From NCBI GenBank assembly GCA_030433215.1, contig JAUIMC010000014.1:32020-96019 (forward strand): a DNA stretch of 64,000 nucleotides, given 5' to 3'. The notes below the pieces were generated by a model that saw only the letters and a program-made list of their open reading frames with translations, did no database searches and was not told the DNA's origin. Source of the stretch: Alphaproteobacteria bacterium (GTDB lineage Bacteria; Pseudomonadota; Alphaproteobacteria; Caulobacterales; Parvularculaceae). Of the stretch, positions 41,739 to 64,000 are shown in pieces (positions within the stretch are counted from its first letter, which is position 1; every line of letters starts with the position of its first letter). A program made the position numbers and the translations under genes.

Positions 41739-42863
41739 TCAAGCCGCAGCCAGATCGGCCCCTTCGCGCAGAACGCGCAGCTTCTTCCAGGTGACGTCCG
41801 GATCGATCTTGCCGTAGCCGGCAAACGTGCCGAAGCCGCAATCGGTGCTGGCGATAACACGGTCCTTGCCGACAATATCGATAAACTTCTGCAGGCGCTG
41901 CGCGATCAGTTGCGGGTGCTCCACATAGTTCGAGCACGTATCGATAAGGCCTGGCGCGAGTCTTTTCTCGTCCGGAATTTTCGCCTCTTTCCAGACCGCC
42001 CATTCATGTTCGTGACGGGGATTGGCCGCTTCGAACAGAATTGTCGCCGGACGCGCCTTCAGGATGATGCCGACGATTTTCTCCAGCGCAATGTCGCAGT
42101 CATGGGGGCCTTCATAATTGCCCCAGCAGACATGCATGCGCAGACGGTCGGCGGGGAAGCCCTCGGTGGCGGCGTTCAGCGCTTCCACATTGGCCTCGGC
42201 AATTTTCACGAACTCCTCGTCGCTTGCGTCCTGATAGCCCGTGTGCCGCGACATGGCGAGGTCGGGACAATCGAACTGAAGGTCGAACCCGGCGTCGATG
42301 ATCGCCTCATATTCAGGGCGCATAGCCGTTGCGAGATCGGCGAGATAAGCCTCGTGGCTCGGATAATACTGGTTCGGCTGAAACGCGGTGATCAGCCCCG
42401 GCGACGCCGCGTTCAAAAACCCTTTAACGCCCTTGCCGTGCTTTTCCATGGCGTGTTTGAACCGGCGGACGTCTTCATGAGCCGGCTCGATGTTTTTCAG
42501 TTTCACCGGCGCAACGCAGGCGGCGCGGGTAAATTCCTGCGCGCCCATGATCGCCGACAGTTTTTTGACGAGATCGGGATGCGCCGCGAGATCGCGCGCC
42601 GGCTTGCGGTCGACATGGCCGCCGAAGCCTTCGAGCCGCTCGGTCATATAAGTCGAATAGCCGACCTTGCCGAGTTCACCGTCGCTGACGATGGTGACGC
42701 CGGCCTCAACCTGTTTGGCCACGGCGTCGTCGATGGCCGCCTGCACCAGACGGTCGAATTCCTCAACATCATAATCTTCGCCATGATCGCGCGCCAGCAG
42801 CGGTTTCACCAGTTCAGGGCCGCGCGGAAGGCTGCCAACATGCGTCGTATCGATTTTGCTCAC
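41739..42863 (-). CDS. core-type MetE/UROD-like zinc methyltransferase
   Basis: GTG start at 42863 (VSKIDTTHVGSLPRGPELV); Zn-ligand motifs LRMHVCWGNYEG and IASTDCGFGTFAGYG. Confidence 0.82.
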   Translation of the reverse strand: MSKIDTTHVGSLPRGPELVKPLLARDHGEDYDVEEFDRLVQAAIDDAVAKQVEAGVTIVSDGELGKVGYSTYMTERLEGFGGHVDRKPARDLAAHPDLVKKLSAIMGAQEFTRAACVAPVKLKNIEPAHEDVRRFKHAMEKHGKGVKGFLNAASPGLITAFQPNQYYPSHEAYLADLATAMRPEYEAIIDAGFDLQFDCPDLAMSRHTGYQDASDEEFVKIAEANVEALNAATEGFPADRLRMHVCWGNYEGPHDCDIALEKIVGIILKARPATILFEAANPRHEHEWAVWKEAKIPDEKRLAPGLIDTCSNYVEHPQLIAQRLQKFIDIVGKDRVIASTDCGFGTFAGYGKIDPDVTWKKLRVLREGADLAAA

Positions 42864-42867
42864 GAGA

Positions 42868-43713
42868 CTAACTCCGTTCTTTCGTAAAATAGGCGATCCC
42901 TCGCGTTTCATAACTCTCCCGCGTCCGCGCGCCTTTGCGCGCCGCGTCGTGAAATGCGGTGTGCGGCGTGCGCCAGGCGCGCCCATGATCGGAATCATGA
43001 AACTTGATAAAGACGATTTCGTCCTTCGTCATATCCGGGTAGTACCACCACCGGTGTTCAGGATTATGAAAGAAGATCGTTGCAGCGACCATTTCCTCTT
43101 CGCCAGGGATCGGTTTGAAACGCTCTTCATAAGGCGGGATCTCGTCCACGTCGACCTTGACATTGGAAACGCCTTCATCGTCCTTGACGCTCGCCGCTTC
43201 GCATAGCGCCAGCGGCCAGTCCTGCGGCGGCTCGCTCAAAACGCGCCAGATACTGAAGATGATGAAGCGGTCGTAACCGGGTCCATCAGGCGCCGTTTTC
43301 TCATAAAGCATCTGCGCGATCTTGTGCGACGTGAACTCGTTGAAATCCACATGCGCTTCCGCCGCCGGCGGCTGAATGATCTCGCCGGTCTTGCCGCTTG
43401 ACCGGATTTGCCCGCCCATGATCGCCACATGATCGGCGCCCGTCATCTCCATGGCGATCTTCTTGATCTCGGGAAAATAGACATTCTCTATGCGCTGCTT
43501 GTTCTCGAAATCGTCGAGCTGGGTCGGGTGCTCGGCGATGGCGAAGCCGTGTTCATCAAGCGTGAAGGGCTTGTCCGCCTGGCGCGCATTGCGAATGACA
43601 ACCGGATAGGGTTCGTATTCGCCAGTGTTCACTTCCTCGCCCGGGGCCCAGAAACGCCGATTAATGAGCGATGTTGGCTTCAGGTAAGAAATTTTCGCGT
43701 CTACGGTTTCCAT
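42868..43713 (-). CDS. CmcJ/NvfI-like oxidoreductase (putative non-heme Fe oxygenase)
   Basis: 281 aa; AEAHVDFNEF (HxD), ALCEA, EHRWWYYPDMTKDEIVFIKFHDSD...PHTAFHD family pattern. Confidence 0.75.
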   Translation of the reverse strand: METVDAKISYLKPTSLINRRFWAPGEEVNTGEYEPYPVVIRNARQADKPFTLDEHGFAIAEHPTQLDDFENKQRIENVYFPEIKKIAMEMTGADHVAIMGGQIRSSGKTGEIIQPPAAEAHVDFNEFTSHKIAQMLYEKTAPDGPGYDRFIIFSIWRVLSEPPQDWPLALCEAASVKDDEGVSNVKVDVDEIPPYEERFKPIPGEEEMVAATIFFHNPEHRWWYYPDMTKDEIVFIKFHDSDHGRAWRTPHTAFHDAARKGARTRESYETRGIAYFTKERS

Positions 43714-43730
43714 TTCCGCGATCCTCCCTG

Positions 43731-44156
43731 TCAGGTTTTGGAAAACAGATTCCGCACGTCGTCCGGCGCGGGCGCGGATTTGATGCCGCCGGGCGCGCTC
43801 TCATCATAAACCGTCCAGACGCGCTTTTCCGTTCCTTCAACGCAAACGACATCCCCCAACAGAATACGATGGGCGACCGTAAAGCTTGAGCGTCCGAATT
43901 CCGGCGCGTCGCTTTCGACAATAACATCGTCGCCATAGGCCGCGGGGCGCATGAACCGCGCCTGCAGATCGATCAACGGATAGCCGGCGACCCCCATGCC
44001 TTTGCGCATTTCACGCTTTTTCGGCAGGCCGGCGAATTCGAACATCTGCACGGTGTTTTCGCTAAACATATCGATGAAGCGCGGCGCGAAGACGATGCCC
44101 GCCGGATCGCACCAGCCCCACTCGATACGAAGCTTCCTCTGGAAGAACGCCGTCAC
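43731..44156 (-). CDS. acyl-CoA thioesterase, 4HBT hot-dog fold
   Basis: 141 aa; RIEWGWCDPAGIVFAPRFIDMF motif. Confidence 0.85.
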   Translation of the reverse strand: MTAFFQRKLRIEWGWCDPAGIVFAPRFIDMFSENTVQMFEFAGLPKKREMRKGMGVAGYPLIDLQARFMRPAAYGDDVIVESDAPEFGRSSFTVAHRILLGDVVCVEGTEKRVWTVYDESAPGGIKSAPAPDDVRNLFSKT

Positions 44157-44159
44157 GGG

Positions 44160-62463: not shown

Positions 62464-62465
62464 AC

Positions 62466-62891
62466 ATGAGCGATGCTGAAAACCTTCATCGCGGCGCCTG
62501 TCACTGCGGCGCCGTGCGGTTTTCAGTAAAACTGCCGGACGGACTGTCGAAACCGCGGCGCTGCACCTGCTCGATCTGCCGAATGCGCGGCGCAGTGGCC
62601 GTGTCGGCTCGTCTCGACGGCTTCACCATTGTGGAAGGGGCTGACAAGCTTTCGCTCTATCAGTTCAACACCGGAACGGCGAAACACTATTTCTGCTCTG
62701 TCTGCGGCATCTACACCCATCATCAGCGCCGTTCCGATCCGACCCAGTACGGCGTCAATGTCGCCTGTCTTGAAGGCGTCAGCCCGTTCGATTTCGAGGA
62801 GGTCGAGGTCTATGACGGCGCGGTCGCTCATACGAGCGACACCCGGGCCGCGCCGGTGCGCGCCGGCGTCCTAAAATTCATCAGGGACTGA
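62466..62891 (+). CDS. GFA (CENP-V/glutathione-dependent formaldehyde-activating-like) family protein
   Basis: 141 aa; RGACHCGAVRFSVKLP, CTCSICRMRGAVAV, YFCSVCGIYTHHQRRSDPTQYGVNVACLEG. Confidence 0.9.
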   Translation: MSDAENLHRGACHCGAVRFSVKLPDGLSKPRRCTCSICRMRGAVAVSARLDGFTIVEGADKLSLYQFNTGTAKHYFCSVCGIYTHHQRRSDPTQYGVNVACLEGVSPFDFEEVEVYDGAVAHTSDTRAAPVRAGVLKFIRD

Positions 62892-63036
62892 GCGCTGCGT
62901 ACGCAGTCGCACAATCAAGTCTCGCCGCGCGCCCATGCCACCGCGGGCGAAGGCGGCCTCCCCCTATGGCGAAGGAAACGCCAGGCAGACAGATCGCGGC
63001 CTTTTCATTTTTTAAGGGCGGCGTCACAGTAGCTTC

Positions 63037-63852
63037 ATGACGGCAAGGACGATCCGGGCGGAAATCAATTACACGGCGCCGATGACCCAGCGGCCGCGCT
63101 ATCACGCCAATGATCAGTCCCGGGACGTCATCGACCTCGATCCCAGAACCGTTCCGATCATCGACGGACGCGCCGAACCGCCCTCCCTCGAGCGCGAAGG
63201 CTTTGCACTCGTTTCGCACCGCAGCAAGGTTGCCGATTTCCGCACGCCGGGAGCGCAGGAAACATACAGATCAGAAATAGAATCGCTGCTCCGCGCGGCG
63301 ACAGGGGCCGACGAGATCGTCATCGCCACGCCGGGCCTCTTCCGGTTCGGCGAAAAATCGCCGGACAGCGGCAAGCATAATAACTCCCGGCCCGCGCGGT
63401 TCATCCATATCGACGTCAATGACGGGACGGCGAACGACTTCTCGCGCGCCTCCGCCCCGATAGACAGAACCGTGCGGCGCGCCGCGCATTTCAATGTCTG
63501 GCGCGTCGTCACGCCGCCGCCGCAGGACGTTCCCCTGGCGCTATGCGACGCCCGCACCCTCGCCCCGGAAGACCTCATCGAAGCCGACGCTGTCTTCGAT
63601 CAGGAAGGAAAGCCGGACTGGTCGTTCACCGGTCTGGTGGTCGGCGCGGCGCCGCGCCATCGCTGGCTGTGGTTTCCGGACATGACCCCGGACGAAGCCG
63701 TCATCTTCGTCACTAATGACAGCGACCCCGCCCGCCCCCATTGCGTCGCCCACAGCGCTTTCGACAATCCCTTGTGTCCGGACGACGCCGTCCCCCGCGC
63801 CAGCCTAGAAATGCGCGCCATCGCCTATTGGCTTGACGAAGCTTCCAGCTGA
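63037..63852 (+). CDS. CmcJ/NvfI-like oxidoreductase, second paralogue
   Basis: 271 aa; RFIHIDVND (HxD), FNVWRVVTPPPQDVPLALCDA, RHRWLWFPDMTPDEAVIFVTNDSDPARPHCVAHSAFDNP. Confidence 0.75.
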   Translation: MTARTIRAEINYTAPMTQRPRYHANDQSRDVIDLDPRTVPIIDGRAEPPSLEREGFALVSHRSKVADFRTPGAQETYRSEIESLLRAATGADEIVIATPGLFRFGEKSPDSGKHNNSRPARFIHIDVNDGTANDFSRASAPIDRTVRRAAHFNVWRVVTPPPQDVPLALCDARTLAPEDLIEADAVFDQEGKPDWSFTGLVVGAAPRHRWLWFPDMTPDEAVIFVTNDSDPARPHCVAHSAFDNPLCPDDAVPRASLEMRAIAYWLDEASS

Positions 63853-63868
63853 GAGAGATAGAGAGGAA

Positions 63869-64000
63869 ATGACCGAATTTCCGCAGACCATTGATTTCAT
63901 ATTCCTCAACCAGCCCGTGGGCGAGGAATATTCGCGAAAGGGGCTCGAAGTCGAAGGGGAAATTCCCACCGATGTGCGCGGCGCTTTTTTCCGGGCCGTG
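63869..64000 (+). CDS. carotenoid/lignostilbene oxygenase-like protein, N-terminus only (truncated by window end)
   Basis: 44 codons: MTEFPQTIDFIFLNQPVGEEYSRKGLEVEGEIPTDVRGAFFRAV; LEVEGEIPxDxRGxFFR is typical of the RPE65/CCO N-terminus. Confidence 0.6.
   Translation, partial: MTEFPQTIDFIFLNQPVGEEYSRKGLEVEGEIPTDVRGAFFRAV

What the first reader, a model, noticed from the sequence alone, without database searches (positions are those of the whole stretch)
41739..64000. Candidate undescribed catabolic island for methoxylated lignin-type aryl ketones
Seen: two LigD-like SDRs, tandem DAD-type cupins, BKACE, aryl/acyl-CoA ligase, LigM/DesA-like O-demethylase, benzoylformate-decarboxylase-like enzyme, PQQ/heme alcohol dehydrogenase, two CmcJ/NvfI-like proteins, a lignostilbene-oxygenase-like start, two MFS transporters, and XRE/AraC regulators. 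Established: DAD (2,4'-dihydroxyacetophenone dioxygenase) cleaves an aryl alpha-hydroxyketone to an aromatic acid plus formate; LigD-type SDRs oxidise the C-alpha alcohol of lignin dimers; LigM/DesA move aryl O-methyl groups to THF. Inference: side-chain oxidation then cupin cleavage gives vanillate/protocatechuate-type acids plus formate. These would be drained by the lig operon and the fhs/fds node in the same window, with no glutathione-dependent beta-etherase seen here.
Basis: partly seen in the sequence, partly recalled or inferred. Interest (0 to 1): 0.8.

Follow-up and report, generated by a model that had tools for sequence, protein, structure and literature searches.

The report
Lignin-dimer catabolic supercluster in a Parvularculaceae bacterium
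This bacterium carries a roughly 90-kb gene cluster whose parts match the enzymes that sphingomonads use to take apart lignin dimers, together with a conserved but uncharacterised cupin-dioxygenase module that probably cuts the side chains of lignin-derived aryl ketones.

Summary
The reading 'catabolism of methoxylated lignin-type aromatics' holds, but it is incomplete. The contig stops inside a lignostilbene dioxygenase, and the cluster continues on contig C31; two same-genus genomes show the junction intact. C31 adds LsdA-, LdpB- and LdpA-like genes (beta-1 pathway), FerD, LigW and LsdD orthologues (beta-5 pathway), FerB and a true DAD. With the lig operon and the formaldehyde/formate genes this is one ~90-kb lignin-dimer supercluster outside Sphingomonadales. 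The window's tandem cupins keep DAD's three iron histidines, but DAD's own motifs and much of its pocket are changed, so they form a sister subfamily. Their module (cupin-SDR-ADH-MFS) recurs in 31-34 of 36 sphingomonad loci, in some beside BKACE, BFDC, DesA and MetE. In Novosphingobium MBES04 a DAD-led cluster is induced by the lignin phenylpropanone HPV/GHP. The aryl-ketone cupin step is therefore plausible but unproven. The window itself lacks a beta-etherase, but the genome has a LigF orthologue. Verdict: a new variant of a known kind.

The parts
41739..42872 (-). MetE-like (cobalamin-independent methionine synthase core) protein; the listed ORF begins at 42998, the likely start is a GTG at ~42872
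   Evidence: PF01717; 75% to a Sphingobium nicotianae homologue that starts at this point; beside DesA in several sphingomonads
42868..43713 (-). CmcJ/NvfI-family protein 1, with HxD...H...RxS motif of Fe(II)/2-oxoglutarate enzymes
   Evidence: NF041278, 264 bits against cut-off 80; motif scan
43731..44156 (-). 4HBT-type acyl-CoA thioesterase
   Evidence: PF13279
44160..44588 (-). small NTF2/SnoaL protein, conserved beside the LdpA-like protein
   Evidence: PF13577; near it in 5 of 8 sphingomonad loci
44591..45310 (-). NTF2-fold gamma-formaldehyde-lyase-like protein; third clade, sister to PcfL, distinct from LdpA
   Evidence: PDB 8abv (LdpA) E 5e-63; tree with supported clades
45326..46843 (-). 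MFS transporter
   Evidence: PF07690
47091..47702 (+). NAD(P)-binding (NmrA/SDR-like) protein
   Evidence: PF13460
47718..48626 (+). LigD-type C-alpha dehydrogenase (SDR)
   Evidence: PDB 4y98 E 3e-95; 52% to SYK-6 LigD
48684..49223 (-). DAD-like cupin A
   Evidence: 4p9g/5bpx E ~1e-18; 3-His/Tyr93/Glu108 kept
49245..49793 (-). DAD-like cupin B
   Evidence: 4p9g E 2e-18; survey
49827..51068 (-). MFS transporter of the cupin module
   Evidence: PF07690; in 31 of 36 cupin loci
51246..52124 (-). SDR C-alpha dehydrogenase (nearest solved structure 4ya6)
   Evidence: 4ya6 E 1e-95
52166..53056 (-). BKACE beta-keto acid cleavage enzyme
   Evidence: PF05853 288 bits; 65-73% orthologues in Sphingobium cupin loci
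53233..54096 (+). XRE/MmyB-type regulator
   Evidence: PF13560, PF17765
54104..55699 (-). acyl/aryl-CoA ligase, substrate unassigned
   Evidence: PF00501; best NCBIfam NF006572, 512 bits, below cut-off 696
55880..57274 (+). DesA syringate O-demethylase
   Evidence: NF047633, 889 bits against cut-off 800; 65% to the SYK-6 DesA at L115
57437..58993 (+). benzoylformate decarboxylase-like ThDP enzyme
   Evidence: NF005485, 678 bits against cut-off 493; PDB BFDCs
59000..59968 (-). AraC-family regulator (FeaR-like)
60106..62463 (+). PQQ-dependent alcohol dehydrogenase with cytochrome c domain
   Evidence: TIGR03075, 663 bits against cut-off 480
62466..62891 (+). GFA-family (CENP-V/GFA) protein
   Evidence: PF04828
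63037..63852 (+). CmcJ/NvfI-family protein 2, with Fe(II)/2OG motif
   Evidence: NF041278, 256 bits; motif scan
63869..64000 (+). first 44 codons of an LsdA-like lignostilbene dioxygenase; the rest is on contig C31 (reverse complement 1-1293)
24410..31251 (+). lig operon (protocatechuate 4,5-cleavage: LigK, LigU, LigJ, LigI, LigB, LigC)
   Evidence: NF006731, NF033377, NF009903; same contig as the dimer genes in G814
35629..38140 (-). S-formylglutathione hydrolase and glutathione-dependent formaldehyde dehydrogenase
   Evidence: TIGR02821 427 bits, TIGR02818 614 bits, both above cut-off
15549..23007 (-). formate-THF ligase, FdhD, and NAD-linked formate dehydrogenase subunits (the FDH naming is by sequence inspection)
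   Evidence: NF010030 900 bits, TIGR00129 169 bits; the 20996-22552 ORF matches NuoF-type models below their cut-offs

Best explanation
The region is one end of a ~90-kb catabolic supercluster for lignin-derived aromatic dimers and their aryl-alkanone monomers in a Hyphococcus-like Parvularculaceae. Best-supported working model: LigD/LigN/LigO/LdpB-type SDRs oxidise or invert the C-alpha alcohol of beta-1 and beta-O-4 dimers. NTF2-fold lyases (LdpA on C31, the third-clade protein in the window) expel the gamma carbon as formaldehyde and leave stilbenes. Lignostilbene dioxygenases split these to vanillin or syringaldehyde. DesA moves the methoxyl methyl to THF; the rings enter the lig operon; formaldehyde and formate are handled by FADH/FGH, formate dehydrogenase and formate-THF ligase. 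A second, monomer-level module (cupins A/B, BKACE, thioesterase, BFDC, SDR/ADH, MFS) handles C2/C3 aryl ketones such as beta-hydroxypropiovanillone (HPV), with the cupins cutting C-alpha/C-beta to an aromatic acid plus a small acid. Shown by homology, order and conservation: the gene set and its orthology. Inferred: all substrates in this organism, and the cupin, BKACE and BFDC reactions.
For: The window NTF2 protein matches LdpA (8abv, E 5e-63), and the 8abv stretch is identical to SYK-6 LdpA. C31 carries LsdA (59%), LdpB (69%) and LdpA (60%) homologues in the SYK-6 neighbourhood, and LigN (59%), FerD (78%), LigW (76%) and LsdD (70%) in the Novosphingobium PcfL neighbourhood (gene order as in the table of PMC12997858). 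The C14-C31 junction is intact in G814 and G804. DesA, FADH, FGH, fhs and several lig genes pass curated cut-offs. The cupins keep Fe ligands His76/78/114, Tyr93 and Glu108. Cupin loci carry the same SDR (34/36), ADH (34/36) and MFS (31/36). A Sphingobium locus places cupin, BKACE, BFDC, MetE, CmcJ1, thioesterase and SnoaL142 within 20 kb (L161). A DAD-led cluster in MBES04 is induced 2.9-45x by GGGE with GHP (=HPV) as effector.
Against: No expression or enzyme data exist for this organism. The window NTF2 protein falls in neither the LdpA nor the PcfL clade, so its substrate is unknown. HPV is a beta-hydroxyketone, not the alpha-hydroxyketone that DAD cleaves, so at least one step is missing. 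Six pocket positions of DAD are changed in the window cupins. MBES04 does not grow on GHP although GHP induces the cluster (PMC10866074). No HpvZ-type oxidase was sought in this genome.
Confidence: 0.72

Rival explanations
1. One reading: a monomer pathway in which SDRs make aryl alpha-hydroxyketones and the tandem cupins cleave them, DAD-like, to vanillate/protocatechuate-type acids plus formate.
For: Three-His iron site, Tyr93 and Glu108 conserved; module induced by phenylpropanone and also by 2,4'-dihydroxyacetophenone in MBES04; formate genes in the same window.
Against: The window cupins lack the RHxHP and EGHTLV motifs and carry D63N, W61Y/V, F129G, V131M, L135N, W137F. The pathway ignores the NTF2 lyases and LSDs. 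Formaldehyde, not formate, is the product of the LdpA/PcfL step (PMC12997858, PMC11323797).
Confidence: 0.35
2. Beta-dicarbonyl model: HPV is oxidised (PQQ-ADH/ADH) to vanilloyl acetaldehyde; the cupins cut this beta-dicarbonyl in the manner of other 3-His cupins to an arylglyoxal, which is oxidised to vanilloylformate and decarboxylated by the BFDC-like enzyme to vanillin. Any vanilloyl acetate is split by BKACE with acetyl-CoA to vanilloyl-CoA and acetoacetate, then hydrolysed by the 4HBT thioesterase.
For: BFDC passes its curated cut-off and has S26/E47/H70 at the expected positions (residue roles from memory). BFDC and BKACE sit next to the cupin in SYK-6 and other Sphingobium loci. A BFDC acting on 4-hydroxy-3-methoxybenzoylformate is known in R. 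jostii (PMC9811514). F199 lacks VceA/VceB homologues, so further vanilloyl-acetate enzymes are expected (PMC11837543).
Against: No cupin of the DAD group is known to me to act on beta-dicarbonyls; the BKACE subfamily substrate is untested; N. subterraneum, which has the cupins, lacks BKACE.
Confidence: 0.3
3. The SDR/cupin/NTF2 set acts on unrelated substrates (steroids, terpenoids, polyketides), as family names such as SnoaL or CmcJ/NvfI might suggest.
For: SnoaL and CmcJ/NvfI families do include biosynthetic enzymes (general knowledge).
Against: DesA, LigD-like, LdpA-like, LsdA, FerD, LigW, LsdD, FerB and the lig operon are contiguous or closely linked here and in relatives. No steroid-ring or terpenoid gene sets were seen.
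Confidence: 0.04

Closest known systems
beta-1 (DGPD) pathway of Sphingobium SYK-6 / N. aromaticivorans: LigD/LigL, LdpB/LdpC, LdpA, LsdA
   Same: Orthologues of LsdA (59%), LdpB (69%) and LdpA (60%) in the same order on C31; LigD-like SDR in the window
   Different: Found in Parvularculaceae and joined with beta-5 and cupin modules; the window adds a third-clade NTF2 paralogue
beta-5 (DCA) pathway of N. aromaticivorans: PcfL, LsdD, FerD, LigW
   Same: FerD (78%), LigW (76%), LsdD (70%) and LigN (59%) orthologues adjacent on C31; a PcfL-clade gene sits in the same place in relative G804 (L135)
   Different: The PcfL-clade gene is missing from that place in this genome; the window protein is sister to PcfL, not in its clade
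2,4'-dihydroxyacetophenone dioxygenase (DAD)
   Same: Related cupin, 3-His iron site, Tyr93, Glu108; a canonical DAD (70% to 4p9g) lies on C31
   Different: Window cupins are ~35% identical to 4p9g, lack both DAD motifs and have a changed pocket
Novosphingobium sp. MBES04 cluster G-II
   Same: DAD-led tandem cluster induced by lignin/GHP; Novosphingobium loci show DAD-cupA-cupB-Rieske (L116), which fits its four genes
   Different: Identity of the two clusters is inferred (the MBES04 sequence was not compared); this window has the cupins without the DAD, and BKACE, BFDC and DesA alongside
SYK-6 desA neighbourhood (L115)
   Same: VOC, cupin, SDR, ADH, ADH, BFDC (48%), BKACE (70%), DesA (65%) in 10 kb
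   Different: One cupin only there; no NTF2 or LigD-like SDR genes next to it

Membership tests
DAD (2,4'-dihydroxyacetophenone dioxygenase) | iron ligands His76, His78, His114 | tested here: met
   conserved in both window cupins
DAD (2,4'-dihydroxyacetophenone dioxygenase) | consensus G(X)3RHXHP and EGHTLV | tested here: not met
   window cupins have THKHR and QAHTLV/EAHTLV; C31 DAD meets both. Window cupins are therefore not filed as DAD
DAD (2,4'-dihydroxyacetophenone dioxygenase) | O2-dependent cleavage of aryl alpha-hydroxyketone to acid + formate | not testable with these tools
   needs enzyme assay
LdpA gamma-formaldehyde lyase | falls in the LdpA clade | tested here: not met
   window protein in a third clade, sister to PcfL; the C31 protein is in the LdpA clade
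PcfL gamma-formaldehyde lyase | falls in the PcfL clade with FerD/LigW/LsdD neighbours | tested here: not met
   sister to, not within, the PcfL clade; 54% identity. The PcfL clade was itself assigned by gene order, not from the Saro_0796 sequence
LdpA/PcfL superclade (NTF2 lyases) | full-length homology to LdpA | tested here: met
   E 5e-63 over residues 9-231
DesA syringate O-demethylase | NCBIfam equivalog NF047633 cut-off | tested here: met
   889 against 800 bits
benzoylformate decarboxylase | NCBIfam equivalog NF005485 cut-off | tested here: met
   678 against 493 bits
LigD-type C-alpha dehydrogenase | nearest to solved C-alpha dehydrogenases | tested here: met
   4y98 and 4ya6 at E ~1e-95
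BKACE | PF05853 above gathering score | tested here: met
   288 against 24.8 bits; substrate subfamily not tested
GSH beta-etherase (LigE/LigF) | homologue in the window | tested here: not met
   none in window; LigF orthologue 65% at C34:1660-2379 and a weak 32% LigE match at C27 elsewhere in the genome
lignostilbene dioxygenase | RPE65-family protein continuous across the contig break | tested here: met
   N-terminal 44 aa on C14, rest on C31; LSD1-CmcJ2 adjacency intact in G814 and G804

The most novel reading that the evidence does not exclude
The window holds two uncharacterised enzyme types: a third clade of NTF2 gamma-formaldehyde lyases, conserved beside DesA and so possibly acting on a syringyl dimer that LdpA and PcfL do not take; and a sister subfamily of DAD with an altered pocket that cleaves C3 aryl ketones such as guaiacyl dihydroxypropanone to an aromatic acid plus a C2 acid. 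Together they would fill missing HPV-level steps in strains without VceA/VceB.
Probability: 0.3. Interest if true: 0.68.

Novelty: new variant of a known kind. Interest (0 to 1): 0.55.

Why it matters
Bacterial lignin-dimer catabolism is known almost only from sphingomonads, and how HPV-type aryl ketones are finished off in strains without VceA/VceB is open (PMC11837543). This locus puts nearly the whole beta-1, beta-5, monomer, ring-cleavage and C1 network in one place in another order. It nominates two concrete, assayable unknowns (a third NTF2 lyase clade and a DAD-sister cupin subfamily) whose gene partners are conserved across orders.

Tried and rejected
Filing the window cupins as DAD: rejected, because both DAD motifs fail. 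Filing the window NTF2 protein as LdpA or PcfL: rejected by the tree. Island by foreign composition: not supported (22-kb island GC 0.606 against genome 0.622, SD 0.017; 12.5% of windows are lower), though its distribution is patchy (4 of 25 same-genus genomes). Steroid/terpenoid or antibiotic biosynthesis suggested by the SnoaL/CmcJ names: no supporting gene set. Whether SYK-6 VceA is a BKACE could not be settled: the primary papers are not held, and the BKACE positions in SYK-6 could not be tied to a locus tag. A search for a paper linking BKACE to lignin gave one hit on another topic. A search for Hyphococcus and lignin gave nothing specific. The MBES04 genome itself was not compared, so its cluster G-II is matched by gene order and description only.

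
Full report
Observation. DesA passes its curated equivalog cut-off (889 against 800 bits), as does the BFDC-like enzyme (678 against 493); both CmcJ/NvfI proteins and the PQQ dehydrogenase pass theirs.

The feature is cut by the contig end. 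The window is C14:32020-96019, and C14 ends there. The last 132 bases are the first 44 codons of a lignostilbene dioxygenase. The only headless LSD in the genome lies at one end of contig C31. The two halves align to one SYK-6 LSD with about 15 residues missing. In two same-genus genomes (G814 contig C35, G804 contig C120) the LSD and the window's CmcJ2 gene are adjacent on one contig, so the C14-C31 join is well supported. In G814 that one contig runs from the DAD/ADH genes through the LSDs, LdpA, BFDC, the window NTF2 gene and formaldehyde dehydrogenase to the lig operon.

Identity of the parts. The 239-aa NTF2 protein at 44591-45310 has LdpA (8abv) as its best solved relative (E 5e-63); PMC11476836 names 8ABV as LdpA, and the 8abv stretch is identical to the SYK-6 protein at the ldpA locus. 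A maximum-likelihood tree separates three supported clades: LdpA, PcfL, and a third that holds the window protein and is sister to PcfL (99/98 and 99/99 support). The third clade is tight (68-87% identity to the window protein) and occurs in sphingomonads and a Woeseiaceae genome. Beside it in eight sphingomonad loci are the small SnoaL protein (5), DesA (4), LsdA-like LSD (4), MetE-like (3), LdpA+LdpB (3) and CmcJ1 (2). C31 supplies LsdA-, LdpB- and LdpA-like genes in the SYK-6 arrangement, and LigN-, FerD-, LigW- and LsdD-like genes in the arrangement of the Novosphingobium PcfL locus (locus tags in PMC12997858), plus FerB (451 against 276 bits). LigK, LigU and LigB, glutathione-dependent formaldehyde dehydrogenase, S-formylglutathione hydrolase and formate-THF ligase pass curated cut-offs.

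Cupins. Both window cupins keep the three iron histidines, Tyr93 and Glu108 of DAD (structure paper PMC4219425; alignment). Both lack the DAD motifs RHxHP and EGHTLV, and the pocket differs: W61Y/V, D63N, F129G, V131M, L135N, W137F. The C31 protein, 70% identical to 4p9g over 146 residues, has the DAD motifs. So the window pair is a sister subfamily, not DAD. It occurs in 31 of 401 Sphingomonadales genomes and in 4 of 25 genomes of the window's own genus. In 36 sphingomonad loci the same SDR and ADH occur in 34, the same MFS in 31, DAD in 20, and BKACE, BFDC and MetE in 6 each; many loci are from a few genera and are not independent. One Sphingobium-type locus (L161) has BKACE, BFDC, two ADHs, SDR, cupin, VOC, MetE, MFS, CmcJ1, thioesterase and SnoaL142 within 20 kb. 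SYK-6 has a short version next to DesA.

Independent functional hint. In Novosphingobium MBES04, four tandem genes headed by a DAD-like gene rise 2.9-44.6-fold with GGGE and 7.6-88.6-fold with hardwood lignin; promoter assays name GHP (guaiacylhydroxypropanone, the same compound as HPV) as the strongest effector (PMC10866074). The gene order fits DAD-cupA-cupB-Rieske as seen in N. subterraneum, but the MBES04 sequence was not compared. The same paper says the strain does not use GHP as an energy source.

Mechanism. Shown: gene content, orthology, gene order and conservation. Inferred from established pathways: SDR oxidation or inversion, NTF2 deformylation, stilbene cleavage, O-demethylation to THF, PCA 4,5-cleavage, and oxidation of formaldehyde and formate. 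Inferred with less support: the monomer module acts on HPV-level aryl ketones. A BFDC for 4-hydroxy-3-methoxybenzoylformate is known in R. jostii (PMC9811514), and F199 lacks VceA/VceB, so unknown enzymes are expected at this step (PMC11837543).

The absence of a beta-etherase holds for the window only: the genome has a LigF orthologue (65%, C34:1660-2379) and a weak LigE match, so beta-O-4 dimers may also be substrates. The C1 genes are explained at least as well by formaldehyde from NTF2 lyases as by formate from cupins.

An unexpected pattern of gene order. In three same-genus genomes the window's genes lie in two separate clusters. One holds LSD1, CmcJ2, PQQ, AraC, BFDC, ACS, MFS, SDR_LigD, NTF2, CmcJ1, MetE; the other DesA, XRE, BKACE, SDR_LigO, cupB, cupA, NADB, MFS, thioesterase. 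Each is collinear with the window, they share no gene, and together they cover it except for the small SnoaL gene (the third genome, G810, is in small contigs). Combined clusters in Parasphingopyxis (L178) and a Sphingobium-type genome (L161) suggest that the interleaved state is the older one and that relatives split it, for example by duplication and reciprocal loss; this is inference.

Novelty. Most parts are orthologues of described genes, and a homologue survey (PMC11323797) already noted one non-sphingomonad ('Maricaulis flavus') with all four beta-5 enzymes. NCBI taxonomy has no such name but resolves Marinicaulis flavus to Hyphococcus luteus. Hyphococcus is probably close to the window's organism, because an 80% NTF2 homologue is named Hyphococcus sp.. 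New here are the joined supercluster, the third NTF2 clade and the conserved cupin-BKACE-BFDC-DesA module.

Noticed in passing
window 38350-63852; L132, L137-L138, L173, L175, L141, L184: In three same-genus genomes the window's genes are split into two clusters that are each collinear with the window and share no gene; together they cover its order except the small SnoaL gene. This suggests cluster duplication with reciprocal loss, or an ordered split.
   Followed up: partly
G000 C34:1660-2379: LigF beta-etherase orthologue (65% to SYK-6 LigF) beside a predicted isocitrate lyase, outside the window.
   Followed up: partly
G000 C30:957-7382: VAO-type oxidase gene and two LdpA-like NTF2 genes with an MFS transporter on a small contig; recalls PinW plus NTF2 chemistry.
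   Followed up: no
window 41739-42872 and 34315-35424: Two MetE-like core proteins; the first sits beside DesA in several sphingomonads (L168, L181, L182), so it may accept the methyl group from DesA-made 5-methyl-THF.
   Followed up: partly
window 42868-43713 and 63037-63852: Both CmcJ/NvfI proteins carry HxD...H...RxS, the Fe(II)/2-oxoglutarate signature, and recur in LdpA-type loci; a role in lignin catabolism is undescribed as far as found.
   Followed up: partly
window 38350-40224: Glycerate kinase and hydroxypyruvate-reductase-like genes travel with the DesA/cupin half in relatives; they could drain a C2 product such as glycolate.
   Followed up: no
window 10906-15421: Molybdopterin biosynthesis genes (identified by sequence inspection) directly next to fhs and the formate dehydrogenase genes.
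   Followed up: no
C31 reverse complement 11357-14629: Nu-class/YfcG-like GST and an alpha/beta hydrolase near PcaK and FerB; possible LigQ- or DesC/DesD-like functions.
   Followed up: no
G000 C27:251702-253096 and C32:188892: A second DesA/LigM-like protein (55%) and a second LigB-like dioxygenase (68%) elsewhere in the genome.
   Followed up: no
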